A DNA stretch of 64,000 nucleotides from Bradyrhizobium sp. S69 (GTDB taxonomy: Bacteria; Pseudomonadota; Alphaproteobacteria; Rhizobiales; Xanthobacteraceae), in assembly GCF_009766005.1 (NCBI RefSeq), contig NZ_LMUK01000009.1, positions 44,944-108,943 of the forward strand, given 5' to 3'. Below the pieces are notes generated by a model. The model had not been told where the DNA came from. It made no database searches and saw only the letters and a list, made by a program, of their open reading frames with translations. Positions 11,645 through 52,707 of this stretch are shown here, piece by piece. The stretch's first letter is position 1. Every line of letters begins with the position of its first letter. A program made the position numbers and the translations under genes.

Positions 11645-11647
11645 AAC

Positions 11648-11665: not shown

Positions 11666-11718
11666 AGTGTGATCAAGCTAGATCGTGCAATCCTGACCTG
11701 CGTTCCTATTTATGCTGC

Positions 11719-12735: not shown

Positions 12736-12801
12736 AGGCAGACTCACGCGCCGTTCGGCTTGAAACCACTTCTGTCCTTGCCAGTTTCAATGATGTAGCA
12801 G

Positions 12802-31169: not shown

Positions 31170-32672
31170 GCGCATCGGCGCAGCGAACGGCCGTGTTCCG
31201 TTGGCGACCAGCGGCGTCGGCTGTTCGCTCAGTTCGGATTCAATGGCTTGCGGCGTGACCGGCACCAGCAGCCGGCAAATCAATCCCTCGGAACGCCAAT
31301 CGAACAGCGCTTGTCCGCCAAGCTGCGACTCGATGCTGGCGATGACGCTTCTGGTGCCAAATCCCCGCGCCGCCGGCTTGTGAACCTCAGGGCCGCCGGT
31401 TTCTTCCCAGACCAAGGTCAGCACATCGTCGTCCTGTAGCTCCCATCGGACCGATACCCGGCCTTGCTCGACCGAGAGCGCGCCATATTTGACCGAATTG
31501 GTCACGAGTTCATGAAAGGCCAGCGCCAGCGTCTGCGCCGTGGCGGGCTCTAGCTGAATCTCGGAACCCCGGACCTTGATCTGGCCTCCGGCTGAATAGG
31601 GCGAGAGTTCCCCGTCGACCAGCCGTTTGATTTTCGCGCCCTGCCAACTCGACAGCGAAAGGATGGTATGAATCCGCGCCAGTGCGCTGATCCGTCCCTC
31701 GACCGCGCGGACATAGGCGGTGATGTCCTGGGCCCGTGTCAGCCGGACGATCGATTGCGCCAGCGCCAGCGCATTTTTCGCCCGGTGATCGACTTCGCGG
31801 GTCAGAAGATTCTGGCGCTCTTCCGCGCGCTTGCGTTCGGTGATGTCGACGGTGACGCCGCTGACGCGGACCACCCGGCCGTTTTTGTCGATCGTCGCCG
31901 CGGCCGTTCCAACGCACCAGCGAAGCTCGCCATCCGGTCGCACGAACCGGAATTCGGTCTCATACGATGTCGCGCCTTTTGCGAACTGGGCGAAGGCCCG
32001 GCGCAATTGGTTGGCGTCCTGGGGATGCAGCAGGTTCTGGATATTTTCCGACGTCACCTGAAACTGCTTCGGGTCGACGCCGCAGATTTGGTACTGGCCT
32101 TCATCCCACATCCAGTCACCGTTGACCCAATCCCAATCCCACGATCCCATTTTTCCGGCGGCGATGGCCATGCTGCGGCGCTGCTCGCTTTCGACCAGCC
32201 GGGCGGTGGATTCCTCGAGCTCCGATGTGCGGGCGCGCACCCGGTGTTCGAGTTCGGCATTGAGCCGTTCCAGTTGCCGGGTCTTGCGGTACAGTTCGAC
32301 GAAGACGTGGATCTTGGCGCGCAGCACCTCCGGAATCACCGGCACCGGCACATAATCGACGGCGCCCATCTCGTAACCTCTGAGCCGATCGATATCGCTG
32401 ACCTGGATCGCCGAAATGAAGATCATCGCGGTCTTCTGGAAGCGCGGATGCTCGCGGATCATGGCGGCGAGCTCGAAGCCGTCGAGCTCCGGCATGCAGA
32501 CGTCCATCAGGATCACGGCGACTTCGTTCTTGAGCAGATATTCCAGCGCTTGCCGGCCCGAAGTCGCCGCGACGAGGTTCTCGCCGAGCTCCTTGAGAAT
32601 GACTTCATAGGCCAACAGCTTGGCCGGCTGATCGTCGACCAGAAGAATGTTTACTTTTTCATGGTCCATCAT
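31161..32672 (-). CDS. Receiver-PAS-HWE histidine kinase
   Basis: 503-residue cytoplasmic signalling protein. An N-terminal receiver domain (about 8-125, phospho-acceptor Asp57 in VILMDVCMPELDG) is followed by a coiled coil (about 130-165), a PAS_3-like domain (about 168-285, ending VTVDITERKRAEERQ) and an HWE-type kinase domain with His296 in REVDHRAKNALALAQSIV. Its ATP-binding half shows ALAFHELVTNSVKYGALS and a final GFGTRSVI, lacking the usual F box as HWE kinases do. It starts 13 bases after the giant HAMP-repeat kinase and is surely co-transcribed; its receiver is a likely phosphorelay partner of that kinase. Confidence 0.93.
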   Translation of the reverse strand: MMDHEKVNILLVDDQPAKLLAYEVILKELGENLVAATSGRQALEYLLKNEVAVILMDVCMPELDGFELAAMIREHPRFQKTAMIFISAIQVSDIDRLRGYEMGAVDYVPVPVIPEVLRAKIHVFVELYRKTRQLERLNAELEHRVRARTSELEESTARLVESEQRRSMAIAAGKMGSWDWDWVNGDWMWDEGQYQICGVDPKQFQVTSENIQNLLHPQDANQLRRAFAQFAKGATSYETEFRFVRPDGELRWCVGTAAATIDKNGRVVRVSGVTVDITERKRAEERQNLLTREVDHRAKNALALAQSIVRLTRAQDITAYVRAVEGRISALARIHTILSLSSWQGAKIKRLVDGELSPYSAGGQIKVRGSEIQLEPATAQTLALAFHELVTNSVKYGALSVEQGRVSVRWELQDDDVLTLVWEETGGPEVHKPAARGFGTRSVIASIESQLGGQALFDWRSEGLICRLLVPVTPQAIESELSEQPTPLVANGTRPFAAPMRSL

Positions 32673-32685
32673 CTGCGCGACCCGG

Positions 32686-35600
32686 TCAGCGGTGCAGCCA
32701 CATGCGGATGGCGAGGAGTAATTGCTCGGTGTTGACGGGCTTCGCCAGGTAATCGGAGGCGCCGGCCTCGAGGCATTTCTCGCGATCCCCCTTCATCGCC
32801 TTCGCCGTCAACGCAATGATCGGCAGCCGGCTGAACGAGGGATTCTGGCGAATGACGCCCATGGTCTGGTATCCGTCCATTTGCGGCATCATGATATCCA
32901 TCAGCACGATCGCAATCTCAGGGCTGGTTTCCACAAGCGCGATAGCCTCACTGCCGGTCGTGGCGGTCAACACCTTCATGCCACGCCGCTCCAGCACGCT
33001 GCTCAGCGCGAAGATGTTGCGGGCATCGTCGTCGACCAGGAGCGCCGTCCTGCCCACCAGATCCTCATCGGAACTGTTGAGCTTCTCCAGCATTCGCTGC
33101 TTCTCGGTTGGCAATTCTGTGATCACACGATGCAAAAACAGCGACGTCTCGTCGAGCAGCCGTTCCGGCGATTCCACGCCCTTGACCACGATGCTTCGGG
33201 CCATGGTGTGGAGTTCCGCGTCCTCCTCGGCCGAGAGTTCCCGCCCGGTGAACACCACGACGGGAACATTGGACAGCGCCTCGTCGTTGCGGATCTGGTT
33301 GAGAACCTCGAAGCCGCTCATGTCCGGCAGCCGCAAATCCAGCACCACGCAATCGCACGGACTGCTGCGCAGCACAGATAGCGCTTCGGCCCCGGTATCG
33401 GTGGCGATGATCTCGATATCCTTGTGATCGAGCAGTTCCCGGATGCTCATTTGTTCCGCGGCATTGTCTTCGACGATCAGCAGGCGCTTGCGTCGCGGCT
33501 TGGTGTATTCCTTGATCTGGGACAGCGCCGCGCTGACGCCTTCGGTCGTGGTCGGCTTGTTGACGAAGGAAAAGGCGCCCCGTGCCAGCGCGTGCTGACG
33601 GTCTTCATCCAGCGTGATGATCTGGACCGGAATGTGTCGGGTCAACGGATTGTGTTTGAGCTGGCTCAACACGGTCCAGCCCAGCATGTCCGGCAGGAAG
33701 ACGTCGAGCGAGACCGCGGTCGGCTGGAACTGCTTGGCAAGGTCGAGCGCTTCCGCGCCCCGCGCCGCGACCAGCACCTTGAAGCCCGTGTCGCGGGCAA
33801 GATCGATCAGCACGCGCGCATAATGCGGGTCGTCTTCGACGATCAGCAGAATCGTGTCGCCCGGCTCGAGATTGAGCCGGTCGTCCGGCAGTTGTTCGAT
33901 GATCCGCTCCTGCGCCGCGGCCTGTAGCGCGGGCGCCGTTGCATAGGGCGTCGGGATACGCGGCGCCACCGTCGGGCCGGAATATTTCAGCGGCAAATAG
34001 AGCGTGAAGGTGCTGCCCTTGCCGGGGGTGCTGCGCAAATGGATTTCACCGCCGAGCAGGCTTGCAAGTTCGCGGCTGATGGCAAGGCCAAGGCCGGTGC
34101 CGCCATATTTCCGGCTGGTGCCGGCATCGGCCTGCTGAAACGCCTCGAAGATCAGCCGCTGCTTCTCCAGCGGGATGCCGATGCCGGTGTCGGTCACCTC
34201 AAAAGCAACGACGGCGGCAGCGTGATTCAAAATCGGGTGCTCTGCGCTCCAGCCGCCAACGGCCGCCGCGACGTTCATTCGGACACCACCCTCCGCGGTG
34301 AACTTGAACGCGTTCGACAACAGGTTTTTCAACACCTGCTGCAGGCGCTTGGAGTCCGTTACCATGCTGCGGGCGAGGTTGCCGTCGACCTCGACCTCGA
34401 ACGACAGGTGGCGATTTTCCGCCTCGTGGCGGAACGGCCGTCCAACCGTATCGAGCAGGCTCGATGTCAGGATTTCTTCCGCATCGACCGTGACGGTGCC
34501 GGATTCGATCTTCGACAAATCGAGAATGTCGCTGATCAGGTTCAACAGGTCGGTGCCCGCGCCGTGAATGGTTCGGGCGAATTCGACCTGTTTGCCCGAC
34601 AAATTGCCGTCCGGATTTTCCGTGAGCTGCTGGCCCAGAATGAGGATGCTGTTGAGCGGCGTGCGCAGCTCATGCGACATGTTGGCGAGGAATTCGGATT
34701 TGTATTTCGACGTCAGCGACAGCTCGGTTGCCTTTTCCTCGAGCGCGCGCCGGGCCTGTTCGATCTCCTGGTTCTTTCTTTCCACCTCGACGTTGCGCTC
34801 GGCGAGCTGCTGCGCCTTCTGCTCCAGCTGTTCGTTGGTCTGTTGCAGTTCCTTTTGCTGGGTCTGCAATTCGCCGGCGAGCTGCTGCGATTGCTTCAGC
34901 AGACCCTCGGTCTGCATGGTGGCCTCGATGCTGTTGAGCACGATGCCGATGCTGTCGGTGAGCTGTTCGAGGAACGTCATTTGCGAGGTCGTGAACGAAC
35001 CCACGGAGGACAGCTCAATGACGGCCTTGACCTGGTTCTCGAACAGCACCGGCAGCACCACCAGATTCCGGGGGGCGACGCGCAGCAGCGCGGAGTTGAT
35101 CGGGATCGCGTCGGTCGGGATGTCCGACACCAGCCGCTGGCGCCGGTCCATCGCGCTTTGCCCAATCAGGCCTTCGCCAAATTGTACGAATTGCGGATGC
35201 GGGTTGGCGCCATTGCCCGCATAGGACGACAGCAGGCGCAATTGCGGATTGTCTTCATTCTCGACGCGGTAAATGACGCCCATATGCGCGTTTACCAGCG
35301 GGGTCAGTTCGGTCAGAAGCAGCCGGCCCACGGTCGTCAGGTCGCGCTGGCCCTGCAGCATGTTGGTGAATTTGGCCAAATTGGTTTTCAGCCAGTCTTG
35401 CTCCGAGTTCACGTCCGTGGTCAGGCGCAGATTGCCGATCATGGTGTTGATGTTGTCTTTGAGCTCGGCGACTTCGCCGCGCGCATCGACCTGAATGGAG
35501 CGGGTGAGGTCGCCTTTGGTGACGGCGGTCGCGACTTCGGCGATCGCGCGCACCTGCGAGGTCAAATTGGCGGCCAGCAGGTTGACGTTGCCGGTGAGGT

Positions 35601-38600
35601 CCTTCCAGGTGCCGGCGGCGCCCGGCACGTTGGCCTGACCGCCGAGTCGGCCTTCCACGCCGACTTCGCGCGCCACGCTGGTGACCTGATCGGCGAATGT
35701 CGCCAGGGTCTCGGTCATGTTGTTGATGGTATCGGCGAGCGCCGCGACTTCGCCCTTCGATTTCACCGTCAGGTCCTGCTTCAAATCGCCGTTGGCAACC
35801 GCGGTCACGACTTTGACGATGCCGCGCACCTGTTCGGTCAGGTTGGCCGCCATGAAGTTCACGGTATCGGTGAGATCCTTCCAGGTGCCGGCGACGCCGG
35901 GCACCTGCGCCTGGCCGCCGAGCTTGCCCTCGGTACCGACCTCGCGCGCCACGCGGGTGACTTCGCCCGCGAACGCGTTCAACTGGTCGACCATCGTGTT
36001 GATGGTGTTCTTGAGTTCGAGGATCTCACCCTTGACGTCGACCGTGATCTTGCGCGACAGGTCGCCGCGCGCCACCGCGGTGGTCACTTCGGCGATGTTG
36101 CGGACTTGCGTCGTGAGGTTGGCGGCCAGCAGATTGACGTTGTCGGTGAGGTCTTTCCAGGTGCCGCCGACGCCGGGCACCACGGCCTGGCCGCCGAGCC
36201 TGCCCTCGGTGCCGACTTCGCGCGCGACGCGGGTCACTTCGGCCGCGAACGAGCGCAACTGCTCGACCATCGTGTTCAGGGTGTCCTTGAGCAGCAGAAT
36301 CTCGCCGCGCACGTCGACCGTGATCTTCTTCGACAGGTCGCCGCCGGCGATCGCGGTCGCCACTTCGGCGATGTTGCGAACCTGGGCGGTGAGGTTCGAG
36401 GCCATGAAGTTGACGTTGTCGGTGAGGTCTTTCCAGGTGCCGGCGACTTCGGGCACCTGGGCCTGGCCGCCGAGCTTGCCTTCGGTGCCGACCTCGCGCG
36501 CGACGCGCGTCACTTCGGAAGCAAAGGCGTTCAACTGATCGACCATGGTGTTGACGGTATTCTTCAGTTCGAGGATTTCGCCTTTGACGTCGACCGTGAT
36601 CTTTTTCGACAAATCGCCCTTGGCGACCGCGGTGGTCACTTCGGCGATGTTACGGACCTGGCCGGTCAAATTGCCGGCCATCGAGTTGACGTTGTCGGTG
36701 AGGTCCTTCCAGGTGCCGGCGACGCCGGGCACGTTGGCCTGGCCGCCCAGACGCCCTTCGGTGCCGACCTCGCGCGCGACGCGCGTCACCTCGCCGGCGA
36801 ACCGGTTGAGCTGATCCACCATGGTGTTGAGCGTTTCCTTCAACTGAAGGATTTCGCCGCGCACGTCCACGGTGATCTTGCGCGACAGGTCGCCGCCGGC
36901 GATCGCGGTGGCAACTTCGGCGATGTTGCGGACCTGCGCGGTCAGATTGCCGGCCATCGAATTGACGCTGTCGGTGAGGTCTTTCCAGGTGCCGGCGACG
37001 CCGGGCACTTCGGCCTGACCGCCCAGCTTGCCGTCGGTGCCGACTTCGCGCGCGACCCGCGTCACCTCGCCGGCAAACGCATTGAGCTGATCCACCATGG
37101 TATTGAGGGTTTCCTTCAATTGAAGGATTTCGCCTGATACGTTCACGGTAATCTTCTTCGACAAGTCGCCTTTCGCGACGGCGGTGGCGACTTCGGCGAT
37201 GTTGCGGACCTGGCCGGTCAGGTTGCCGGCCATCGAGTTGACGTTGTCGGTGAGGTCCTTCCAGGTGCCGGCGACGCCGCGCACGTTGGCCTGACCGCCG
37301 AGCTTGCCTTCGGTACCGACTTCGCGCGCGACGCGCGTCACTTCGCCGGCGAACGCATTGAGCTGGTCGACCATCGTGTTGATGGTGTCTTTCAGCTCGA
37401 GGATTTCGCCACGCACGTCCACCGTGATCTTTTTCGACAGGTCGCCATTGGCGACCGCGGTGGTCACTTCGGCGATGTTTCGAACCTGCGCGGTCAGGTT
37501 CGACGCCATCGAGTTGACGCTCTCGGTCAGATCCTTCCAGGTGCCGGCGACACCGAGCACGTTGGCCTGTCCGCCCAATCTTCCGTCGGTGCCGACCTCG
37601 CGCGCGACGCGCGTGACTTCGCCGGCAAAGGCGTTGAGCTGGTCGACCATGGTGTTGAGGGTTTCCTTCAATTGAAGGATTTCCCCTGATACGTTCACCG
37701 TGATCTTCTTGGAGAGGTCGCCGCCCGCGATCGCGGTGGCGACGTCGGCGATATTGCGCACCTGTGCGGTGAGGTTGGAGGCCATGAAGTTGACGTTGTC
37801 GGTGAGGTCCTTCCAGGTGCCGGCAACACCCGGGACCTGGGCCTGACCGCCGAGTTTTCCCTCGGTTCCGACCTCGCGCGCGACGCGCGTCACTTCCGAG
37901 GCGAACGAATTGAGCTGGTCGACCATCGTATTGATGGTGTCTTTCAGTTCGAGAATTTCGCCGCGGACGTCGACCGTGATTTTTCGCGACAGGTCGCCGC
38001 GGGCGACCGCCGTCGTCACGTTGGCGATGTTGCGAACCTGCGCGGTCAAATTGCCGCACATCGCGTTCACCGAGTCGGTCAGATCCTTCCAGGTGCCGGC
38101 GACGCCAGGCACGATCGCCTGGCCGCCGAGTTTGCCGTCGGTGCCGACCTCGCGCGCCACCCGCGTCACTTCGGACGCAAACGAGCGCAACTGGTCCACC
38201 ATGGTGTTGATGGCTTCCTTGAGCTGCAGGATCTCACCGCGCACGTCGACCGTGATCTTCTTGGACAGATCGCCATTGGCAACCGCGATGGTGACCTCGG
38301 CGATGTTTCGAACCTGGCCGGTGAGGTTATTGGCCATCGAGTTCACGCTTTCGGTCAGGTCTTTCCAGACCCCCGTCACTTCGGGAACCTGGGCCTGACC
38401 GCCGAGCTTGCCTTCGGTGCCGACCTCGCGGGCGACGCGCGTCACCTCCGAGGTGAACACGCTGAGCTGCTTGATCATGGTGTTGACGATATTGGCCGAC
38501 TGAAGAAATTCGCCGCCCAGCGGGCGGCCATCGACGTCCAGTTGCACGGTTTGCAGCAGGTCGCCCTGCGCCACGGCGGCCACTGCGCGGGTCACCTCGC

Positions 38601-38964
38601 GGGTCGGCCACAACAGGTCGTCGATCAGGGTGTTGACGGAACCTTCCATGTCCGCCCATGAGCCGCTGGCCAGATCGAACTTCACGCGCTGCCGGGTTTT
38701 GCCTTCACGGCCGACGACTTGGCCGACCCGTTCCAGTTGCTGCGCCATCCGCTGGTTCGCAGCGACGATTTCGTTGAAGGTGTCGGCGATCTTGCCCTCG
38801 ATCCCGAGATGATCGCCGGTCATCCGCACCGAAAAATCCCCGCTTCGCATCGCTTGCAGGGCGTGCAGCAGGTCTTGCAGGGGATCAGATTTTCCGTTCG
38901 GGGCAGGATTGTTTTTCGCGACGCGACGGGCGGTTGAAGGTGCGTCGGGAACCAGGTCGCTCAT
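32686..38964 (-). CDS. Giant hybrid histidine kinase with tandem HAMP repeats, GAF and three receivers
   Basis: 2092-residue protein of the Nik1/group III hybrid kinase type, without membrane segments. After a degenerate N-terminal HAMP region (1-170) come eleven near-identical 92-residue units (about 172-1180), each built of a HAMP pair with [31 protein letters not shown] and [15 protein letters not shown]. Then follow a GAF domain (about 1195-1350), a coiled coil (about 1360-1425), HisKA with His1431 in [12 protein letters not shown], HATPase_c (about 1540-1650, NLLSNAFKF and GTGLGLAIS) and three receivers (about 1700, 1825 and 1970 onward; the last phospho-acceptor is Asp2023). Nik1 kinases sense osmotic or cell-envelope stress through HAMP-array mechanics. 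It heads an operon with the receiver-PAS-HWE kinase. Confidence 0.95.
35430..38460 (-). repeat. Eleven 276-bp coding repeats (HAMP pairs) within the giant kinase
   Basis: The plus-strand phrase GTGAGGTCCTTCCAGGTGCC (with single-base variants) recurs every 276 bases, at about 35594, 35870, 36146, 36422, 36698, 36974, 37250, 37526, 37802, 38078 and 38354. The period equals 92 codons, so reading frame is kept. Units differ mostly at third positions and in short swaps such as [15 protein letters not shown] against [15 protein letters not shown]. Confidence 0.95.
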
Positions 38965-45579: not shown

Positions 45580-46620
45580 TCAACCTGTCAGCACCGGTCC
45601 GCCGGCCTTCTTCCAGGCGTCGATGCCGCCGGCGATGTGCGCGGTATTGGCGAGGCCGGCGTCCTTGGCGGCGGCAACCGCCATCGCGGACCGTTCGCCG
45701 AAGGCACAGAAGAACACGATGCGGCGTCCGGTCGCCGCCGCCACCTCGCGCAACATGCCGCCCGGCGCCAGGCTTTCGCCAACGCCCGGATAGGGCGCGT
45801 GAAGCGCGCCCGACAGCGTGCCGTGTCTGGCGCGTTCACCATTCTCGCGAAGGTCGACCAGCAGCACTTCGGGCCGGCCGAGGCTCTCGATGGCATCGCG
45901 GGCCGTTAGCGCCAGTCCCTGTTTGGCAAGATCGTCCTGATGCAGGCCGACATGCATGTTGGCCGGCACCACGACGTCCATCAGTTTCGGATTCGGCAGA
46001 TTGAGATTGCCCATCAGCGCGACATACTCGTCGATCGAGCGCACTTGCAGCCGCGGATTGTAGCGCTTCTCCTCGCCGATGGTGGAGACGGTATCGCCCT
46101 TGTAGTCATGGGCCGGGAACACCATCGTCTCGTCGGGTAATTTGAGCAGCCGGTTGAAGATCGAATCGTATTGCGACCGCGCGCTGCCATTCTGGAAATC
46201 GGTTCGGCCGGTGCCGCGGATCAGCAGTGTGTCGCCGGTGAAGACCCGATCGCCCATCAGATAAGAGTAGGAATCGTCGGTGTGGCCGGGCGTGTACATC
46301 ACGTCGAGGCAAAGACCCTCGATCGTCACCTTGTCGCCGTCGGCCACCCGCATCGCCACCACGTCGGCCTTGCTCTGCTCGCCCATGATGGTGACGCAAT
46401 GGGTACGGTCGCGCAGCTCGCCGAGCCCGGTGACGTGGTCGGCGTGGAGATGGGTATCGACGGCCTTGACCAGCTTCAGGTCGAGCTCGCGCAGCAACTG
46501 GCAATAGCGGTCGGCCTTCTCCAGCACGGGATCGAGGATCAGCGCCTCGCCGCCGGGCCGGCTGGCGAGCAAATAGCTGTAGGTTCCCGAGACGCTGTCG
46601 AACAGCTGGCGAAAGATCAT
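45580..46620 (-). CDS. Persulfide dioxygenase (ETHE1-like)-rhodanese fusion protein
   Basis: 346-residue cytoplasmic protein. The N-terminal metallo-beta-lactamase domain (about 1-230) has THLHADHVTG, GHTDDSYSY, GDTLLIRGTGRTD and FPAHDY, the iron-binding and ETHE1-type motifs of enzymes that oxidise glutathione persulfide to sulfite. The C-terminal rhodanese domain (about 240-346) keeps its active-site cysteine in FFCAFGERSAMAV. Such fusions couple sulfane transfer to persulfide oxidation. ATG at 46620 is chosen because MIFRQLFDSVSGTYSYLL is the family start; an upstream ATG at 46647 has no better site. It lies 84 bases after the HbpS-like gene on the same strand and forms the end of the sulfur cluster. 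Confidence 0.92.
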   Translation of the reverse strand: MIFRQLFDSVSGTYSYLLASRPGGEALILDPVLEKADRYCQLLRELDLKLVKAVDTHLHADHVTGLGELRDRTHCVTIMGEQSKADVVAMRVADGDKVTIEGLCLDVMYTPGHTDDSYSYLMGDRVFTGDTLLIRGTGRTDFQNGSARSQYDSIFNRLLKLPDETMVFPAHDYKGDTVSTIGEEKRYNPRLQVRSIDEYVALMGNLNLPNPKLMDVVVPANMHVGLHQDDLAKQGLALTARDAIESLGRPEVLLVDLRENGERARHGTLSGALHAPYPGVGESLAPGGMLREVAAATGRRIVFFCAFGERSAMAVAAAKDAGLANTAHIAGGIDAWKKAGGPVLTG

Positions 46621-46675
46621 GGCTGGCTGTATCCGCTTTGCCAGCAAATAATAACTGATTTTCGCCGGACAAGCA

Positions 46676-46690
46676 GTAGATATCTTCTAC
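46676..46690. promoter_or_regulatory. Inverted repeat upstream of the persulfide dioxygenase gene
   Basis: GTAGATATCTTCTAC: 5-base arms GTAGA / TCTAC around a 5-base centre, 56-70 bases upstream of the gene start in an AT-rich stretch. It may be an operator for a separate promoter, for example of an ArsR-type persulfide sensor, but no such regulator is encoded nearby. Confidence 0.35.
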
Positions 46691-46704
46691 AATCTAGCGC
46701 CTTT

Positions 46705-47223
46705 TCAGAAATCGATCCTATCCCGGATCGCCTCCAGCCCCGCTTTGGCGCAGGCCTCGTCCTTGTCGCCGCCGGGTGCGCCGGAGACGCCGATGCCGCC
46801 GAGGAGTGTGCCGGCGGCTTCGATCACGAGGCCGCCGGCCAGCATCGCGATGTGGGGCAGTTGGGCCAGCCCTGCGTCCATCTGCCCGGAGCGGACCGAT
46901 TTCGCCAGATCGCTGGTGTCTTTATGGAAACTCAGCGCGGTGTAGGCCTTGCTGGTCGCGGTCTCGGCCGCCGGCAATCCGGCAAAACGGTCCCGCAGCA
47001 TCACCTGGGCCTGACCAAAACGGTCGACCACGGCGACCGCGACCTGGAAACCGTCGGCGCGGCATTGCTTGAGGGCGGCCTGCGCCGCCTCCAGCGCGAC
47101 CTCCGGCGAAAGCGACTTGTAGACCACCAGCGCGTCGTCGCCCGCGATGGCGGCCGGAGCGCCCAGCGCCAGCATCGCCGCTGTGGTCATCGCCAGAACG
47201 CGCATCGCCCGAGCTCTGCTCAC
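46705..47223 (-). CDS. Exported HbpS/GlcG-like protein
   Basis: 172-residue protein of the GlcG/HbpS (DUF336) family, whose characterised members bind haem or corrin-like ligands. A Sec signal peptide is visible (MRVLAMTTAAMLALGAPAAI with cleavage near IAG), then the family text ALKQCRADGFQVAVAVVDRF, LAGGLVIEAAGTLLGGIGVS and GAPGGDKDEACAKAGL. A GTG start at 47223 overlaps the stop of the upstream DsrE-like gene (GTGA), with ATG at 47205 as an alternative. It is coupled to the DsrE pair and SoxB, so a periplasmic role in sulfur oxidation, perhaps with SoxXA haem or redox state, is likely but unproven. Confidence 0.85.
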   Translation of the reverse strand: MSRARAMRVLAMTTAAMLALGAPAAIAGDDALVVYKSLSPEVALEAAQAALKQCRADGFQVAVAVVDRFGQAQVMLRDRFAGLPAAETATSKAYTALSFHKDTSDLAKSVRSGQMDAGLAQLPHIAMLAGGLVIEAAGTLLGGIGVSGAPGGDKDEACAKAGLEAIRDRIDF

Positions 47224-47675
47224 GGCCGCACATAACTCCAGCCCTGTTCCTGCAATTCGCTCAAATGCACGACGCCGGAGGGCACGACGGTGGCATCGGG
47301 CAGCAGCGCAATCGGGTGGCCTTCCGCCTTCTCCATGCCCTGCCTGGTGTTGTTGCAGGCCGAAAACTGGATCCTGCCGGGGAAGACCATGTCCTTGAGA
47401 CGCTTGACGCGATCCTGCACCGGCGAGGTGTCGGCGCGCAGCATATGCAGGCCCGGGCCGTAGGCGACGATGTCGATATCGACCTCTTCGTTCTTGGATC
47501 GATAATATTCGATCACGTTGTTGGCGTTGCCGAGCACCAGATTCATCAGCTGCGGGTCGTTCTGATCGATCTGGATCGCGATGTGATGCGGCTTGGCATC
47601 GGCGGCCGGACTGCCGGAGGTGAACGCGATCGACATCAGGGTGGCGGCGGCCAGACAACGAACGAAACTATACAT
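47220..47675 (-). CDS. Exported DsrE-like sulfur-carrier protein (second of pair)
   Basis: 151-residue protein with a Sec signal peptide (MYSFVRCLAAATLMSIAFTS, mature near ADAKP). The mature domain has the DsrE/DsrF-like fold (COG1416 style): HHIAIQIDQNDPQLMNLVLG, DIDIVAYGPGLHMLRAD and one conserved cysteine in IQFSACNNTRQGM, followed by SGVVHLSELQEQGWSYVRP. DsrE-type cysteines carry sulfane sulfur as a persulfide; export to the periplasm sets this subgroup apart from the cytoplasmic DsrEFH complex. It starts 12 bases after its paralogue and overlaps the HbpS-like gene. Confidence 0.85.
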   Translation of the reverse strand: MYSFVRCLAAATLMSIAFTSGSPAADAKPHHIAIQIDQNDPQLMNLVLGNANNVIEYYRSKNEEVDIDIVAYGPGLHMLRADTSPVQDRVKRLKDMVFPGRIQFSACNNTRQGMEKAEGHPIALLPDATVVPSGVVHLSELQEQGWSYVRP

Positions 47676-47687
47676 GACGCGAACTCC

Positions 47688-48173
47688 TTAGGGTCGGACC
47701 AGAGTATATCCGTTTTCTGTCAGCGACAGGATCTGCCCGACGCCGACCTGAACCGGGGTCGCTGCCGGGATATATTGCGGCCGCTTGCCGGTGTCGCGCT
47801 CGATCGTATCCACGGTATTGAGGCAGATGTCGAACTTGACGCCCTGCGCGACCAGGCTCTCGATCCGTTGGCGATTGGCATTGTCCGGAAACAGCAAGTC
47901 GATGCCAGGACCGAACGCCACCACCTCGATCGCGACCTTGTCGGGATCGTAGAGTTTTAAGAGATTATAGGCGACGCTGATCACGAGGCTTTGTTTCTTC
48001 GGATCGTTGTCGGAAAGCTGCAGCACAATTCGGTGTTCGGCGAACGGCTTGTCCGGCAGCGGCGCCGGTTCGGCGCCGACGGCGGGCGCGGCACTCGCCA
48101 GCGCGATCGCGATCATCATCGCGTTGGCAAAGGCGCGGACCAGCGATCTCCAATGGATTGGCAAAGCTCTCAT
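47688..48173 (-). CDS. Exported DsrE-like sulfur-carrier protein (first of pair)
   Basis: 161-residue paralogue of the next protein. The N-terminal segment (LVRAFANAMMIAIALASAAP) is a signal peptide ending near VGA. The mature domain reads HRIVLQLSDNDPKKQSLVIS, VAIEVVAFGPGIDLLFPDN and has a single cysteine in VKFDICLNTVDTI, with the same C-terminal pattern (LSLTENGYTLVRP). The two proteins share layout but are well diverged, so a heterodimer is possible. Its start overlaps the soxB stop by four bases, tying it tightly to the Sox operon. Confidence 0.85.
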   Translation of the reverse strand: MRALPIHWRSLVRAFANAMMIAIALASAAPAVGAEPAPLPDKPFAEHRIVLQLSDNDPKKQSLVISVAYNLLKLYDPDKVAIEVVAFGPGIDLLFPDNANRQRIESLVAQGVKFDICLNTVDTIERDTGKRPQYIPAATPVQVGVGQILSLTENGYTLVRP

Positions 48174-49921
48174 CCCTGTCCCGCGATGCCCGGATTGTCG
48201 TCGACGCCCTTCAGCGTGATGTCGGCGCCGCGCTGGTCACCTGCTTTTTTCCCGGAACGCAGATGGCTGGCAACGACATCCCACACCGGGGTTCCCTTTT
48301 GCGCGTTGACCGACGCCCATCCCGCCACCTTGTAGGGCTTGCCGGCTTCGATAATGCGGCCATTGTCGAGCTTCAGCTCGGAGATGCGGTGGCCGACCGC
48401 TTCATTGGGCGAACAGGTATAGCTCATGCCGCCGACGCGAACCATGTCGCCGCCTTGCTGGTAATAGGGATCGGCATTGAAGAGATTGTCGCAGACGTCC
48501 TCGAGGATATCCTTGAGCTGGCTGCCGGTCATGCTCTGGACGTAGGTTTCGGGATAGGTGATCGCGGTTTCCGCCAGCACATCCTGCATCGTCACCGGCT
48601 GGCCCGCCAGCACGCTGGTGCCCCAGCGAAAACCCGGCGACAGCGCGATCTCGGCATTGAGCTCGCCGCGCAGCGCATCGCAGATCATTTGATCCATCGT
48701 GCCGCTGAAATTGCCGCGGCGATAGAGCAGGCGGTCGGCGGTCGTGATCTTCTCGGCATCCGGCGTCGCATAGGGTTCGCGCGATCGGTCGATCAGCGCC
48801 TGCATCTCGGCATCCGGCTTCAGCAGCTCGGAGAATACCGGCAGCAGCCGGTAGCGCACATCGCTGACCTTGCCTTTGGCCAGTTCGAGATCGAGCACGC
48901 CCAGGAATTTTCCGTTGGAGCCCGCGTTGGTCACCAGCGTGACGCCGCCGGCATTGCTGACGGATATCGGTTGCGGAACAGCATCATGGGTATGGCCGCC
49001 GAGAATGACGTCGATGCCGCGCACGCGGCCAGCGAGCTTGAGATCGACATCCATGCCGTTGTGCGACAACAGCACCACCGCATCGACCTTGTCGTTGCTG
49101 CGCAGGCCATCGACCAGCTTTTGCAATTCGTCGTCGCGAATGCCGAAGGTCCAGTCCGGCGTGAACCGCTTCGGATGCGCGATCGGCACATAGGGAAACG
49201 CCTGGCCGATCACCGCGACGCGATGCCCGCCGAATTCCTTGATGGTGGCCGGCTTGAAAGCGCGGCCCGATGCGGCATCGAACGCCTTGGCGTCGTTGAA
49301 CGCGGCCTCTTCGGTCAGGAACACATTCTGCGCCAGGAATTCACCCTTGAAGCGTGCCAGATTGCCGCGCAACGCCGCTTCGCCGTAGGTGAATTCCCAG
49401 TGCCCGGTCATCGCCTCGATGCCGAGCAGGTTGGCGGCCTGCACCATGTCGGCGCCCTGCGTGGCATTGGCCTGGCCGGTGCCCTGCCACAGATCGCCGC
49501 CATCCAGCAGCAGCGCGCGCCCGGCGCCGGCGTCGCTGCGCAGGCGGTCGATCAGCGTCTTGAGATGCGCGAAGCCGCCAAGCTTGCCGAAGCGGCCCGC
49601 GGACTTCTCGAAATCGAGAAACGTGAAGGCGTAGGCATCGGCGCTGTCCGGGTTGATGCCAAACCGATTGAGAAAGGCGCGGCCGACCAGATGTGGCGGC
49701 TTGCCGGCCATCGCCCCGATCCCGAGATTGACGCTCGGCTCGCGAAAATACATCGGCTGCAACTGCGCATGGGTATCGGTCATGTGCAGGATGCGCGCGT
49801 TGCCGAAGCGCTCGAGATCGTAAACGCCCGCGTTTTCGCCGCCGCGTGCGGTCCGTGACAGCCCCGGCAGCAACGTGGCCGTGCCCGCGAGTTTGAGGAA
49901 ATCCCGGCGACGGATGGTCAT
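48170..49921 (-). CDS. soxB: Thiosulfohydrolase SoxB
   Basis: 583-residue periplasmic di-manganese hydrolase that releases sulfate from the S-thiosulfonate bound to SoxYZ. A Tat leader (TIRRRDFLKLAGTATLLPGL) precedes the mature protein. Metal-site motifs are ILHMTDTHAQLQP, LLLDGGDLWQGTG, TGHWEFTYGE (the SoxB form of the nucleotidase GNHE motif), VVLLSHNGMD and ILGGHTHD. The C-terminal 5'-nucleotidase-like substrate domain (about 370-560) is complete. GGAG precedes the ATG by seven bases. It lies 28 bases after the SoxK-like gene and overlaps the first DsrE-like gene. Confidence 0.97.
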   Translation of the reverse strand: MTIRRRDFLKLAGTATLLPGLSRTARGGENAGVYDLERFGNARILHMTDTHAQLQPMYFREPSVNLGIGAMAGKPPHLVGRAFLNRFGINPDSADAYAFTFLDFEKSAGRFGKLGGFAHLKTLIDRLRSDAGAGRALLLDGGDLWQGTGQANATQGADMVQAANLLGIEAMTGHWEFTYGEAALRGNLARFKGEFLAQNVFLTEEAAFNDAKAFDAASGRAFKPATIKEFGGHRVAVIGQAFPYVPIAHPKRFTPDWTFGIRDDELQKLVDGLRSNDKVDAVVLLSHNGMDVDLKLAGRVRGIDVILGGHTHDAVPQPISVSNAGGVTLVTNAGSNGKFLGVLDLELAKGKVSDVRYRLLPVFSELLKPDAEMQALIDRSREPYATPDAEKITTADRLLYRRGNFSGTMDQMICDALRGELNAEIALSPGFRWGTSVLAGQPVTMQDVLAETAITYPETYVQSMTGSQLKDILEDVCDNLFNADPYYQQGGDMVRVGGMSYTCSPNEAVGHRISELKLDNGRIIEAGKPYKVAGWASVNAQKGTPVWDVVASHLRSGKKAGDQRGADITLKGVDDNPGIAGQG

Positions 49922-49949
49922 GCGATATCTCCGCGCCTCCTAAATTGGC

Positions 49950-50309
49950 TCAGCGTATTTCCTGCGCCTTCCAGGCTTGTTTTTCGCTGGTGCCCTGGAA
50001 AATCGACGCTTTCGCCAGCGCCTCGGCTTCCTTCGACAGGGCTACCGCGGCATCAAAATTGCCGGCATCTGCGGCTTTTTTGGCGTCAGCCAACGTGCTC
50101 GCGGTCGCCGTCCACTGGTTGCGCAGCGCGCCCGCCTGCGTGTTGGCGGCCTCGGCGACGGCATAGGCCGCCTTGAACTCATCCACGGAAGCCGCTGCCT
50201 GCGCGGAGCTCGCGCGCGTTATCTGCAGCATCGTGGTCAATAGCGTCGTCGCCAGCACCAGCCGCGCGATCGGCCTGTTGCTTCCCGTCAGGCGCATGGT
50301 CATTTTCAT
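49950..50309 (-). CDS. soxK: SoxXA-binding protein, SoxK-like
   Basis: 119-residue small exported protein between soxA and soxB, the place where SoxXA-binding (SAXB/SoxK) proteins are encoded. A signal peptide (RLVLATTLLTTMLQI ... AQAA) is followed by a helical hairpin: VDEFKAAYAVAEAANTQAG, NQWTATASTLADAKKAADAG and a final ALAKASIFQGTSEKQAWKAQ. The Trp/Ala-rich pattern fits that family, which makes SoxXA a three-part complex. The start overlaps the soxA stop by four bases. The gene symbol rests on position and general pattern. Confidence 0.75.
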   Translation of the reverse strand: MKMTMRLTGSNRPIARLVLATTLLTTMLQITRASSAQAAASVDEFKAAYAVAEAANTQAGALRNQWTATASTLADAKKAADAGNFDAAVALSKEAEALAKASIFQGTSEKQAWKAQEIR

Positions 50310-51172
50310 GGCCGCGCTCCCGGACCGGAGATCGGCAGTCCGTTACTGACATAGGACAAATAATATTCGAGATCGCGGTATTCGTCGGATTGCGGATCGA
50401 GCGGCACGCCGCGGGTCTGGACGTTGCAGGTGATGAAGCGCCGGCTGATCGTGCCCATGCCGCCCCATTCGGAGCGGTAAATAGGCATCGCATTGAGAAT
50501 CCCGAGCGCGGGCGCGAGGATCTCGGCGCGAATCCGCTCGCCCGGATTTTGCACATGGCAGCTTGCACAGGAGAAATTGAGCTGGCCGCGGCGGGTATAG
50601 AAATATTGCTTGCCGGTCTCGAAGGCCTCCAGCGCGCGCGGATCGTTCGGGATCTTGATGTCGAACGGCTTGCCGCGCGAGGTGAACGCCATGTAGCCGG
50701 TCAGCGCGGCCATCTCGTCCTTTACATAGGAGAACGGCGCCTCGCCATTGGCTTGGCGGCAGCGGTTCAACGCCAGCTCGAGCGTGACGACCTTGCCTTC
50801 CTTGTCGTCGAAATACGGATAGTTCTGGCGGATGCCGATGCCGCCGTTCGCAAAGCAATCGGCGTAGCTCTTGCCGTTCTTGAACGGCTGGGCGAACATC
50901 TCTTTGCCCATGTCGAGCGAGAATTCGTAAGGCGGGAATTCCTCCTTCTCGACCCACTGCCGATGCATGTCTTCATTCAGCGAGTAGGGGCCGTTGACGA
51001 AATCCTCCAGCTTCAGCTTGGGGAATTTGGTCGTGAAGAATTTCTGGAACGCCCGCGCGTCGGCGGCGGGGTCGATCGCATTGGCGGCCGAGGCAGGCGG
51101 TGCCGCCGCAAGCGTCAGCGCAGCCAGCGCGAGCGCCACTGAGGCCAGGGAGATTGCCGATCGGACCTTCAT
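50306..51172 (-). CDS. soxA: L-cysteine S-thiosulfotransferase subunit SoxA (mono-haem type)
   Basis: 288-residue periplasmic c-type cytochrome that, with SoxX, joins thiosulfate oxidatively to the SoxY cysteine. The Sec signal peptide ends near SAAN (residue 30). There is one haem motif, CASCH at 202-206, and the catalytic cysteine, which becomes a persulfide ligand, is Cys249 in RFITCNVQTRG. The N-terminal domain has Cys106 and Cys138 instead of a second haem site, as in mono-haem SoxA proteins, where they form a disulfide. Coupled to soxK by a four-base overlap and 32 bases after soxZ. Confidence 0.95.
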   Translation of the reverse strand: MKVRSAISLASVALALAALTLAAAPPASAANAIDPAADARAFQKFFTTKFPKLKLEDFVNGPYSLNEDMHRQWVEKEEFPPYEFSLDMGKEMFAQPFKNGKSYADCFANGGIGIRQNYPYFDDKEGKVVTLELALNRCRQANGEAPFSYVKDEMAALTGYMAFTSRGKPFDIKIPNDPRALEAFETGKQYFYTRRGQLNFSCASCHVQNPGERIRAEILAPALGILNAMPIYRSEWGGMGTISRRFITCNVQTRGVPLDPQSDEYRDLEYYLSYVSNGLPISGPGARP

Positions 51173-51204
51173 GTCAGCTCACGCGCTATCATCTTATGAA
51201 ATCT

Positions 51205-51516
51205 TTACGATATCTTGGCCGTGGTGGTGTCCGAGGCGCCCTTGTTGTCGATCCAACTGATTTTGAGGTCGTCGCCCTTGTTGCCGCCCTTGAAGCTGAA
51301 CTTGACGTAAGGGTCCTTGGAAACCGCCGTTCCCCAGTCCGCGACGAACACGGCCTTGCCGTTACATTCGAACGTCAATTGCTGGATGAAATGCGGCGGA
51401 ATGATCTGCCCCTGGGCGTCTTTCACGAAGCCTGAATCCATCGGGTGCTGGATCAGCGCCTGGACTTCGGTGGTGTCGCCGGTTGCAGTGGCGCGCACGC
51501 GAATGGTCGATGCCAT
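51205..51516 (-). CDS. soxZ: Thiosulfate-carrier complex subunit SoxZ
   Basis: 103-residue partner of SoxY without its own signal peptide; it is exported together with SoxY through the Tat leader of that protein. Family marks are MDSGFVKDAQGQIIPPHFIQ, LTFECNGKAVFVADWG and DPYVKFSFKGGNKGDDLKIS. The length is normal. It is separated from soxY by 85 bases holding a short palindromic repeat. Confidence 0.95.
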   Translation of the reverse strand: MASTIRVRATATGDTTEVQALIQHPMDSGFVKDAQGQIIPPHFIQQLTFECNGKAVFVADWGTAVSKDPYVKFSFKGGNKGDDLKISWIDNKGASDTTTAKIS

Positions 51517-51542
51517 CGGAATGTTCCTCGTTACAATTGACG

Positions 51543-51590
51543 CATAATCTTATCGGAAAACCGGTATCCACTTTTCCGGATCATGCGTAT
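51543..51590. repeat. Short palindromic repeat between soxY and soxZ (family G, inverted)
   Basis: CTTATCGGAAAACCGGTATC then CACTTTTCCGGATCATGCG is the reverse complement of the core of the element at 57837-57886 (AGCATGATCCGGAAAAGTGG ... ACCGGTTTTCCGAAAAGATC). It can form a hairpin inside the sox mRNA, which could lower or adjust expression of the genes after soxY. Confidence 0.75.
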
Positions 51591-51601
51591 TAGATATCTG
51601 G

Positions 51602-52105
51602 TTAACCGCCGCAGCCGCCGACGGTGACTTTGACTTCCTTGGTGGCGCTGTAGAGCTTGCCGCCGGCTTCGACGATCGCGGTGACGTTGCTGGTCTTGGC
51701 CATTTTGAGGCGGTTGGCCACGCTCGGCAGCGTGCCCGGTAAAATCTGGTAGGACGCCGCCAATGCGTTCGGATTGTCAGCGACCAGAAAAGAGATCGAG
51801 GTCACGTCGGTCAATGTCGTGGTAACCGAAATCGGAACCACCGCGCCGTTCTCCGCGATCTCGGGGGCGTCGAGCTTGACCTGGTCGGAGGGTTCGGCGG
51901 TCTTGCCGTACAGCGACTTGATGGCTTCGGCCTGGCCCTTTTGCTTGAAGGCGTCTTCCGGCCATTTGTCGTTGGCTGCGGCGAGCGCCGGCATCGGGCC
52001 GAACGGCAAAATGCCGAGGCCTGTCAGCGCGACGAGACCGACGCCTTTCAGGATCAGCCGCCGGCTGGCCGAATACCCCGAGAATTCATCATCCGTGGTC
52101 GTCAT
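51602..52105 (-). CDS. soxY: Sulfur-compound carrier SoxY
   Basis: 167-residue periplasmic carrier that holds sulfur intermediates on its C-terminal cysteine. The canonical GGCGG end is present (VTVGGCGG, Cys165). A Tat leader is visible (SASRRLILKGVGLVALTGLG), followed by the SoxY domain (KLDAPEIAENGAVVPISVTT, SISFLVADNPNALAASYQIL). A GGGGGACTTT stretch precedes the ATG. It lies 47 bases after soxX, upstream of soxZ. Confidence 0.97.
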   Translation of the reverse strand: MTTTDDEFSGYSASRRLILKGVGLVALTGLGILPFGPMPALAAANDKWPEDAFKQKGQAEAIKSLYGKTAEPSDQVKLDAPEIAENGAVVPISVTTTLTDVTSISFLVADNPNALAASYQILPGTLPSVANRLKMAKTSNVTAIVEAGGKLYSATKEVKVTVGGCGG

Positions 52106-52152
52106 CTAAAAGTCCCCCAAGAAGTCTTTCTATCAAGACGCGCGTGGCGTCA

Positions 52153-52566
52153 TCACAAGGTCTGCAGGAAATCCACCACCGCGTTGATCTCCTGCTCGGT
52201 CAAAATCCGGTTTCGTCCGAACGGAGGCATGACGGTTTGCGGATTGCGTTTGGTCTCGTCGTTGAGGATCGCGACCAGATCGTTACGGTCGGGATATCTG
52301 CTTTTGATGTCCTTCAGCTCCGGGCCGATGCTGCCGGGGAGGTCGCCGCCCTGGATCACATGGCAGGTCAGGCAATTGCCCTTGCCGCGATCGAACGCGA
52401 TCTTCTGACCCTCGGCTGCACTGGCGCCGGTTGCTTGGGATTGCGCGCAAGCGGGGCTTGCGAAGGCGGCTGCGCCGATCAGCAACGCCAGCGCCCAGGC
52501 GGACTTCGTCGAAGAAATCTCGGCGGGCTTCGTCGAACAAATCTCGGTCAAGGGCGCTTCCCGCAA
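52153..52566 (-). CDS. soxX: Cytochrome c subunit SoxX
   Basis: 137-residue exported mono-haem cytochrome c, electron-accepting partner of SoxA. The haem motif is CLTCH at 65-69, with a probable methionine ligand in PQTVMPPFGRNR (Met113) and the family C-terminus LTEQEINAVVDFLQTL. The signal peptide core is WALALLIGAAAFASPACAQ. There is no ATG: TTG at 52566 or TTG at 52551 (with GGGAAGCG upstream) must be used. The region just after the start carries a 24-bp tandem duplication. It is the first gene of the cluster and is divergent from a DUF938 methyltransferase. Confidence 0.92.
   Translation of the reverse strand: MREAPLTEICSTKPAEISSTKSAWALALLIGAAAFASPACAQSQATGASAAEGQKIAFDRGKGNCLTCHVIQGGDLPGSIGPELKDIKSRYPDRNDLVAILNDETKRNPQTVMPPFGRNRILTEQEINAVVDFLQTL
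52501..52548 (-). repeat. 24-bp tandem duplication in the 5' end of soxX
   Basis: Two adjacent 24-base units on the minus strand, encoding TEICSTKP and AEISSTKS, differ at four positions. They lengthen the N-region of the signal peptide. Confidence 0.8.
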
Positions 52567-52707
52567 GCTTCTCGATTATTTCACCGGATTATAGGCGGCC
52601 GGGTGCCGAATTGCCACCGGCCCAAGTTAGACAACACGTGGACACAATAGGATCGCGCCGTCGAGGTAAACCGGCTATTTTGGCCATTAATTACCCGGGA
52701 GCGTGGC

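What the first reader, a model, noticed from the sequence alone, without database searches (positions are those of the whole stretch)
45580..52566. Sox cluster without SoxCD, continued by two exported DsrE-like proteins, an HbpS-like protein and a persulfide dioxygenase-rhodanese fusion
Seen: soxX-Y-Z-A-K-B, then two DsrE-like genes, an HbpS/GlcG-like gene and an ETHE1-rhodanese fusion, all on one strand. Four of the junctions are 4-base overlaps or similar (soxA/soxK, soxB/DsrE-1, DsrE-2/HbpS, and a 14-base DsrE-1/DsrE-2 gap). Known: without SoxCD, the sulfane sulfur left on SoxY must leave by another route; DsrE-type cysteines carry sulfane sulfur, and ETHE1 enzymes oxidise persulfides to sulfite. 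Inference: the exported DsrE pair unloads SoxYZ or acts as a periplasmic sulfur relay, with a haem-binding HbpS-like protein as a redox or sensor part. Both sides of the cluster are bounded inside the window (divergent DUF938 gene; small unrelated genes), so soxCD and soxR are truly absent from this locus.
Basis: partly seen in the sequence, partly recalled or inferred. Interest (0 to 1): 0.8.

Follow-up and report, generated by a model that had tools for sequence, protein, structure and literature searches.

The report
Exported DsrE sulfur relay beside Sox
A bacterial gene cluster for oxidising thiosulfate (Sox) continues into genes for two small DsrE-like proteins, each with a single invariant cysteine and predicted to be exported, that likely pass sulfur from the Sox carrier towards a membrane sulfur importer; related genomes keep them with or without the usual SoxCD enzyme, so they are probably a side exit for sulfur rather than a stand-in for SoxCD.

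Summary
In detail: soxX-Y-Z-A-(SoxK-like)-B, two DsrE-fold proteins with signal-peptide-like starts, an HbpS-like protein and a persulfide dioxygenase-rhodanese fusion lie on one strand with tight junctions; soxCD and soxR are absent from the locus. But "Sox without SoxCD" fails for the genome: a full-length SoxC (619 bits, cut-off 420) lies on another contig. In 12 of 31 determinable relatives soxCD sits inside this very cluster, between DUF938 and soxX; the window lineage lacks that block. Of 58 family genomes with DsrE-1, 51 have SoxC; five near-complete ones have none. So the DsrE module works beside SoxCD, not as its fixed replacement. New here: the DsrE pair also sits in a second Sox cluster type, directly behind a YeeE/SoxT-family transporter gene; there DsrE-2 stays behind that gene in 12 of 13 loci read even where DsrE-1 is missing. 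55 of 58 DsrE-1 genomes, the window's included, encode that transporter type. Best reading: the DsrE proteins are periplasmic sulfane-sulfur carriers between SoxYZ and a SoxT-type importer, feeding the cytoplasmic fusion enzyme. In window-type clusters DsrE-1 and the fusion enzyme are constant; DsrE-2 and HbpS are not. No biochemistry was done.

The parts
52153..52566 (-). soxX, c-type cytochrome (one CxxCH); first gene of the cluster
   Evidence: TIGR04485 88.6 bits, cut-off 61; CxxCH at residue 65
51602..52105 (-). soxY, sulfur carrier with C-terminal GGCGG
   Evidence: TIGR04488 158.4 bits, cut-off 125; C-terminus read
51205..51516 (-). soxZ
   Evidence: TIGR04490 131.5 bits, cut-off 76
50306..51172 (-). 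soxA, one CxxCH haem motif
   Evidence: TIGR04484 228.6 bits, cut-off 110
49950..50309 (-). soxK-like (SoxAX-binding protein-like)
   Evidence: NF052674 42.2 bits, below its cut-off of 95; 4-base overlap with soxA
48170..49921 (-). soxB, thiosulfohydrolase
   Evidence: TIGR04486 831.7 bits, cut-off 550; the only SoxB over the cut-off in the genome
47688..48173 (-). DsrE-1 (E1): DsrE-fold protein, signal-peptide-like start, single Cys117
   Evidence: no Pfam match; AlphaFold mean pLDDT 82, 83 or higher in every 10-residue block from model residue 41 (the model starts at residue 2); Foldseek MTH1491, DsrEFH, TusBCD; Cys invariant 39 of 39
47220..47675 (-). DsrE-2 (E2): DsrE-fold protein, signal-peptide-like start, conserved Cys107
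   Evidence: PF02635 24.2 bits, cut-off 22.7; pLDDT 86; Foldseek MTH1491; Cys invariant 34 of 34
46705..47223 (-). HbpS/GlcG-like protein with signal-peptide-like start (GTG 47223 overlapping the DsrE-2 stop, or ATG 47205)
   Evidence: PF03928 103.6 bits, cut-off 25; closest solved relatives 3fpv/4bmw haem-binding HbpS
45580..46620 (-). persulfide dioxygenase-rhodanese fusion, no export signal seen
   Evidence: Lactamase_B + Rhodanese; match to BpPRF 5ve3 over residues 1-340 of 346, dioxygenase part to 4ysb; HLHADH, TPGHT, GDTL and rhodanese CAFGERS motifs (motifs recalled)
52567..52707 (.). 141-base gap between soxX and the divergent DUF938 gene, where relatives carry soxC-soxD and mostly an ArsR gene
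   Evidence: sequence; soxCD there in L016, L017, L019, L031, L033, L036, L039, L040, L044, L122, L123, L124; ArsR by Pfam for L123

Best explanation
The cluster is a soxXYZA-(SoxK-like)-B thiosulfate-oxidation gene set that continues into two DsrE-fold proteins predicted to be exported, an HbpS-like protein and a persulfide dioxygenase-rhodanese fusion; the DsrE proteins likely take sulfane sulfur off SoxYZ and would hand it to a YeeE/SoxT-type importer, so that the fusion enzyme, predicted to be cytoplasmic, would oxidise it to sulfite beside SoxCD and not instead of it. Shown by sequence: gene order, single invariant cysteines, predicted fold, signal-peptide-like starts, recurrence in two Sox cluster types, DsrE genes directly behind a YeeE gene in one type, coexistence with SoxCD. 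Inferred: sulfur binding on the cysteines, transfer from SoxY and to the importer, import, oxidation by the fusion enzyme. SoxCD would take the main flow where present; the DsrE branch would be the overflow exit, and the main exit in the few species with no SoxC.
For: Single Cys invariant in 39 of 39 DsrE-1 and 34 of 34 DsrE-2, aligning with a Cys of the solved DsrE-like MTH1491. E1 and E2 are two groups, each holding both Sox cluster types (split 98/100), so the same pair serves two Sox lineages whose SoxB are 46-47% identical. In the second type the gene upstream of E1 is YeeE/Sulf_transp (86-121 bases in 18 of 20 places, 288 and 372 in the others). In 13 further Sox loci of family genomes with this YeeE but without E1, a DsrE-2 (64-78% identical to L046's) follows YeeE in 12 of 13. 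That YeeE type (60% identity or more) is in 55 of 58 E1 genomes against 19 of 97 SoxB genomes without E1, and 12 of those 19 are the DsrE-2 loci just named. The window genome's only YeeE is 62% identical to it. By coordinates, two genomes have it about 1 kb from E1 behind soxB, one 1.7 kb from soxC of such a cluster. The fusion enzyme is in 35 of 35 determinable window-type loci. In Cupriavidus, soxCD deletion raises pdo and yeeE/yedE transcripts and PDO oxidises the sulfane sulfur (PMC9959259, passages); SoxT1A imports sulfur in Hyphomicrobium and the step before it is called unknown (PMC11582611, passages).
Against: No interaction, persulfidation or transport was tested. In the window's genome the YeeE gene is not among sulfur genes (neighbours named by recall as phenylacetate-type), and inside the window's genus all 17 genomes have it whether or not they have E1, so the association rests on other genera and is not corrected for kinship. 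Three E1 genomes (G406, G417, G492) lack it, and one of 13 read Sox loci has this YeeE with no DsrE behind it (L134). The second cluster type has SoxC close by and no fusion enzyme seen in the stretches read, so what imported sulfur would feed there is open; SoxT may serve signalling, as PMC11582611 assumes for complete Sox systems. In the window type E2, the DsrE most tied to YeeE, is often missing. 97 of 155 SoxB genomes of the family lack E1 at E 1e-30.
Confidence: 0.5

Rival explanations
1. Signal relay: the DsrE proteins with the YeeE/SoxT transporter deliver a little sulfur to a cytoplasmic ArsR-type SoxR repressor, to report thiosulfate, and carry no mass flow.
For: In the second cluster type YeeE-(E1)-E2 faces a second YeeE followed by an ArsR gene; PMC11582611 (passages) assigns signalling to SoxT1B and assumes it for complete Sox systems. 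In-cluster soxCD of the window type comes with a divergent ArsR-like gene in 9 of 12 loci.
Against: Window-type clusters without the soxCD block show no ArsR match in the locus (19 of 31 determinable) and still keep DsrE-1, while the fusion enzyme, a bulk oxidation enzyme, is there in 35 of 35. The E1-linked YeeE is only about 37% identical to the ArsR-linked one.
Confidence: 0.2
2. SoxYZ repair: DsrE-1/2 strip over-loaded or dead-end sulfur from SoxY in the periplasm, to keep the carrier active, as proposed for SoxS in Paracoccus (recalled); nothing needs to be imported.
For: None of the ten cluster genes is thioredoxin-like; E1 directly follows soxB.
Against: The second cluster type has a thioredoxin-like gene beside the ArsR gene (L125) and still keeps E1-E2; it does not explain the YeeE linkage or the constant fusion enzyme.
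Confidence: 0.12
3. One reading: the DsrE/HbpS/dioxygenase set replaces SoxCD in a SoxCD-less Sox system.
For: Five near-complete genomes (G073, one contig; G181, G445, G465, G374) have SoxB and E1 but no SoxC match; the SoxC of the window's genome is of an unlinked clade whose part in the Sox cycle is unproven.
Against: 51 of 58 E1 genomes have SoxC; for 39 of 60 E1 places SoxC is within 15 kb; HbpS and DsrE-2 are often missing.
Confidence: 0.12
4. Passenger genes: DsrE-1/2 have another periplasmic role and are only hitch-hiking.
For: More distant DsrE relatives (31-38% identical) also occur away from sox genes, as in Azospirillum and on an Acidithiobacillus plasmid.
Against: All 58 E1 genomes, of 248 examined, have SoxB, 33 of 60 E1 places adjoin soxB, and a remote pair follows soxB in Methylosinus.
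Confidence: 0.06

Closest known systems
SoxT/YeeE import module of Hyphomicrobium denitrificans (SoxT1A with DsbA-like protein and Rhd442; PMC11582611, passages read)
   Same: Truncated-type Sox chemistry, a YeeE-family importer and a cytoplasmic sulfur-handling rhodanese
   Different: The proposed periplasmic donor there is a DsbA-like thioredoxin and the sink is sHdr; here it is DsrE proteins predicted to be exported and a PDO-rhodanese fusion, and the importer gene is not in the window's cluster
Cupriavidus pinatubonensis JMP134 soxCD deletion route (PMC9959259, passages read)
   Same: Sulfane sulfur left by Sox is oxidised by PDO; yeeE/yedE rise when soxCD is gone
   Different: DsrE has 0 occurrences in its main text and the transport step is left open; an engineered strain, not a natural gene cluster
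sox locus I of Bradyrhizobium diazoefficiens (soxTRSVWXYZABCD; PMC5748708, passages and outline read)
   Same: Thiosulfate oxidation by Sox proteins in the likely same genus
   Different: That locus has soxR, soxT and soxCD together and DsrE has 0 occurrences in the paper; the window's cluster is of another kind
BpPRF persulfide dioxygenase-rhodanese fusion (PDB 5ve3) and the dioxygenase 4ysb
   Same: Same domain order, metal and rhodanese motifs
   Different: Here it closes a sox cluster in 35 of 35 determinable window-type loci
YTD clusters (YeeE-TusA-DsrEFH type II; PMC13293266, PMC13047784, passages read)
   Same: A YeeE-type transporter beside DsrE-fold sulfur carriers
   Different: There the sulfur is thought to pass in the cytoplasm from TusA to DsrEFH; here the DsrE proteins have signal-peptide-like starts and sit with Sox genes
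DsrEFH/TusBCD and MTH1491 (1l1s) DsrE-fold proteins
   Same: Fold and conserved cysteine place
   Different: Those are cytoplasmic (recalled); DsrC/TusE partners were not searched for here

Membership tests
Truncated Sox system (no SoxCD) | soxXYZAB present | tested here: met
Truncated Sox system (no SoxCD) | no SoxC in the genome | tested here: not met
   SoxC 619 bits on C23; not filed as a truncated Sox organism
Complete Sox system | SoxC encoded | tested here: met
   L010:9351-10892, 618.9 bits against 420
Complete Sox system | SoxD encoded | tested here: inconclusive
   187-aa cytochrome c next to soxC, similar at 49-58% to the gene after soxC in relatives; no SoxD model matched
Complete Sox system | that SoxCD acts with this SoxYZ | not testable with these tools
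   unlinked clade, 51-57% identical to in-cluster SoxC
DsrE/DsrF family (PF02635) | profile over cut-off | tested here: inconclusive
   DsrE-2 24.2 against 22.7; DsrE-1 no match
DsrE fold | structural match with the conserved Cys | tested here: met
   Cys aligned with MTH1491
DsrE-type sulfurtransferase | sulfane sulfur bound and passed on by the Cys | not testable with these tools
   no assay
Persulfide dioxygenase-rhodanese fusion (PRF) | both domains in that order with active-site motifs | tested here: met
HbpS-like (PF03928) | profile over cut-off | tested here: met
   103.6 against 25
HbpS-like (PF03928) | binds haem | not testable with these tools
   no assay
SoxK/SAXB (NF052674) | score over cut-off 95 | tested here: not met
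   42.2 bits; called SoxK-like
SoxT-linked Sox cluster | YeeE gene within the cluster | tested here: not met
   only YeeE of the genome is on C49; linked in relatives
YTD cluster | YeeE, TusA and DsrEFH together | tested here: not met
   the genome's only YeeE is on another contig; TusA was not searched for

The most novel reading that the evidence does not exclude
Exported DsrE proteins are the missing periplasmic carrier that links SoxYZ to YeeE/SoxT sulfur importers: DsrE-1 is tied to soxB in one Sox cluster type and DsrE-2 to the importer gene in the other, a portable relay that lets an organism divert Sox-bound sulfane sulfur into the cytoplasm whether or not it has SoxCD.
Probability: 0.45. 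Interest if true: 0.75.

Novelty: new variant of a known kind. Interest (0 to 1): 0.57.

Why it matters
How the second sulfur atom of thiosulfate gets from the periplasmic carrier SoxYZ into the cytoplasm is called unknown in PMC11582611 and was not studied in detail in PMC9959259 (passages). This cluster and its relatives name concrete, testable candidate carriers (DsrE-1, DsrE-2) and their likely importer, in genera with cultured strains such as Bradyrhizobium and Tardiphaga, including near-complete genomes without a SoxC match in which they would be the main exit. It also warns against reading soxCD absence from one locus: here soxCD is on another contig, and relatives carry it in the very same cluster.

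Tried and rejected
Rejected: 'SoxCD-less organism'. Rejected: 'HbpS is an integral part' (in 14 of 36 determinable window-type loci), although HbpS follows soxA-soxX directly in the second cluster type (L046, L125) and is in 12 of 13 further loci of that type, so some tie to Sox haem proteins is likely. Rejected: 'the pair is obligatory' (DsrE-2 full length in 27 of 37 window-type loci, fragment in 2, absent in 8; DsrE-1 absent from 13 of 13 loci read, which were chosen for lacking it).

Led nowhere: the protein searches listed only close relatives, so distant reach came from loci and profiles; the third search was not used. Azospirillum and Acidithiobacillus plasmid relatives sit among unrelated genes; the Indioceanicola record lists no genes there. 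The place of remote DsrE rows in the tree is unsure (long branches).

Corrected error: the dioxygenase query was out of frame; its identities there are void, and repeats it in frame (84-93%).

Papers: seen as passages PMC5748708 (also outline), PMC11582611, PMC9959259, PMC13293266, PMC13047784; others as search listings. 'Not described' rests on the searches in one open-access library.
Full report
What is there. The window is a stretch of contig C14 of a 7.5-Mb, 99.99% complete draft genome; the nearest named relatives are Bradyrhizobium, so the organism is probably of that genus (inferred). On the minus strand lie soxX, soxY, soxZ, soxA, a soxK-like gene, soxB, DsrE-1, DsrE-2, an HbpS-like gene and a persulfide dioxygenase-rhodanese fusion. 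Five Sox proteins pass curated equivalog cut-offs; SoxK does not (42.2 against 95). The junctions are tight: two 4-base overlaps, a 12-base gap between the DsrE genes, and a possible GTG start of HbpS that overlaps the DsrE-2 stop by 4 bases. A DUF938 gene runs away on the other strand 141 bases from soxX.

The proteins. DsrE-1 and DsrE-2 start with basic, hydrophobic, signal-peptide-like stretches; by a simple hydropathy rule 38 of 39 DsrE-1 and 34 of 34 DsrE-2 sequences from the loci do, 37 and 34 with a basic residue before it (starts were picked by expected length, and no trained predictor was available). Each has one invariant cysteine (39 of 39; 34 of 34, which kept sequences of 130 aa or more and over 50% identity), at the place of a cysteine in MTH1491. 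Structure predictions are confident in the core and match MTH1491 first; DsrE-1 also matches DsrEFH and TusBCD chains and DsrE-2 other DsrE-family structures. The fusion enzyme matches BpPRF over residues 1-340 of 346, keeps the dioxygenase and rhodanese motifs (motifs recalled) and shows no export signal.

SoxCD. The same genome encodes a full-length SoxC (619 bits against 420) next to a short SoxD-like cytochrome on contig C23, with no other sox gene recognised in the 20 kb read and a gene related to cytochrome bd subunit I nearby (below its model's cut-off). SoxD is named by position and by 49-58% similarity to the gene after soxC in relatives. In a SoxC tree of 41 sequences it belongs to a clade of unlinked SoxCD (15 rows, 100/100) apart from the in-cluster SoxC, to which it is 51-57% identical. 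Whether it works with this SoxYZ is unknown. Among 38 genomes holding named relatives of the locus, 33 have SoxC over the cut-off; the 5 without are metagenome bins of 3.1-4.3 Mb (L025 was not held).

The cluster in relatives. I read 37 window-type loci in which DsrE-1 is complete: 31 of the 39 loci (L014-L041, L043, L044, L051) plus six fetched (L119-L124). Dropped from this count are L052 (DsrE-1 cut by the contig end) and seven second-type loci (L042, L045-L050; L042 and L050 show YeeE, the DsrE pair and ArsR but no sox genes in the stretch held). By the table, recounted: fusion enzyme 35 of 35 determinable; DsrE-2 full in 27 of 37, fragment in 2, absent in 8; HbpS 14 of 36; soxCD inside the cluster, between DUF938 and soxX, 12 of 31, with a divergent ArsR-like gene in 9 of those 12 (confirmed as ArsR by Pfam for L123). 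So the window lineage lacks a block that others carry at exactly this place; loss is the simpler reading, but later gain in the others is not excluded. DsrE-1 itself was the search bait, so its presence there is by construction.

Family-wide counts. In 248 genomes of the family: SoxB 155, SoxC 160, DsrE-1 at E 1e-30 or better 58. All 58 have SoxB; 51 have SoxC and 7 do not: G073, G181, G445, G465, G374 (99-100% complete) and G492, G504 (81% and 87%). Of 60 DsrE-1 places in the 58 genomes, 33 directly follow soxB (36-188 bases by profile ends), 20 lie 6.9-8.7 kb from soxB, and 7 have no listed SoxB place within 15 kb on the contig, in part because the place list is cut and contigs break. For the 33, SoxC is within 6 kb in 19, farther or on another contig in 9 (G422 and perhaps others are contig breaks), and absent in 5. 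In 249 genomes of the order the same searches gave SoxB 89, DsrE-1 profile 32 (8 strong, all on the soxB contig) and SoxC 72.

The importer link. The 20 places at 6.9-8.7 kb are a second cluster type (Tardiphaga and kin): in L125, YeeE, DsrE-1, DsrE-2 in one direction, facing a second YeeE, an ArsR gene and a thioredoxin-like gene, with HbpS just behind soxA-soxX, then soxY, Z, B, C, D. YeeE is 86-121 bases from DsrE-1 in 18 of those 20, at 288 and 372 in the others. DsrE-1 and DsrE-2 each form one group holding both cluster types (98/100), while the SoxB proteins of the two types are 46-47% identical: the pair is shared, the Sox genes are not. That YeeE type (60% identity or more to L125) is in 55 of 58 DsrE-1 genomes and in 19 of 97 SoxB genomes without DsrE-1 (Fisher p 1.7e-21, not corrected for kinship). 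In 13 of those 19 it lies within 10 kb of soxB; I read all 13: DsrE-1 is missing, but DsrE-2 (64-78% identical to L046's) sits directly behind YeeE in 12, and only L134 has none there. The other 6 (G294, G424, G442, G460, G490, G520) have the two genes on different contigs and were not read; G442 is the genome of L052, where DsrE-1 is cut by a contig end. So each DsrE protein can stand alone: DsrE-1 with soxB and the fusion enzyme, DsrE-2 with the importer.

Limits of that link. In the window's genus all 17 genomes have this YeeE, DsrE-1 or not (15 and 2), so that genus adds nothing; genera g130, g151 and g113 mostly fit (exceptions G442, G424), g142 does not. By coordinates, G376 has it 1.7 kb from soxC of a soxB-DsrE-1 cluster, and G432 and G499 about 1 kb from DsrE-1. 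The window genome's single YeeE is 62% identical to the DsrE-linked one and 34% to the ArsR-linked one, but stands away from sulfur genes (neighbours named by recall as phenylacetate-type).

Mechanism. SoxAX and SoxB leave a sulfane sulfur on SoxY (established). SoxCD oxidises it in place where present. I infer that DsrE-1 takes part of it on Cys117, alone or with DsrE-2, and that it passes to a YeeE/SoxT importer; inside, the fusion enzyme would make sulfite by way of glutathione persulfide. In Cupriavidus the loss of soxCD raises pdo and yeeE/yedE transcripts, with soxY, sqr and soxF (PMC9959259, passages), and in Hyphomicrobium a SoxT imports the sulfur while the delivering step is open (PMC11582611, passages). 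The DsrE proteins fit that gap. Confidence 0.5.

Limits. No expression, binding or transport data; export and location are predicted; associations are not corrected for shared descent; in the second cluster type no fusion enzyme was seen nearby, so its sink is open and signalling to the ArsR protein is a fair rival. Wider tie of DsrE to Sox: soxZ-soxB-DsrE-DsrE-DUF302 on a Methylosinus plasmid and soxB-C-D-DsrE in genomes of two other families (L126, L127).

Novelty. Each part is a known kind; DsrE proteins predicted to be exported, tied both to Sox and to a YeeE importer, were not found described in the library searched.

Noticed in passing
L011 (G000:C54:357001-376000), 8376-9481 -: A second SoxA (225.6 bits, cut-off 110) and SoxZ (83.9, cut-off 76) lie together near a flavoprotein weakly related to sulfide-quinone reductase (94.8 bits, cut-off 525), away from the window's cluster.
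   Followed up: partly
L010 (G000:C23:61001-81000), 8801-13763: The unlinked soxCD of this genome lies near a gene related to cytochrome bd oxidase subunit I (below the model's cut-off).
   Followed up: partly
L083 (Methylosinus trichosporium plasmid pOB3b1), 4678-9439: soxZ-soxB-DsrE-DsrE-DUF302 on a plasmid, with what looks by eye like the end of a soxY upstream, next to an IS6 transposase gene.
   Followed up: partly
L125:10004-12022: In the second Sox cluster type an HbpS-like gene follows soxA-soxX by about 22 bases, a second tie of HbpS to Sox cytochromes; HbpS is also in 12 of 13 further such loci.
   Followed up: partly
G073, G209, G232: Genomes without DsrE-2 in the cluster have another DsrE-1-like match far away (79-87 bits); none was listed for G150 and G181.
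   Followed up: no
window 31161-38964 -: A 2092-residue open frame beside a 503-residue response-regulator-like one, possibly a large hybrid sensor kinase pair (by eye only).
   Followed up: no
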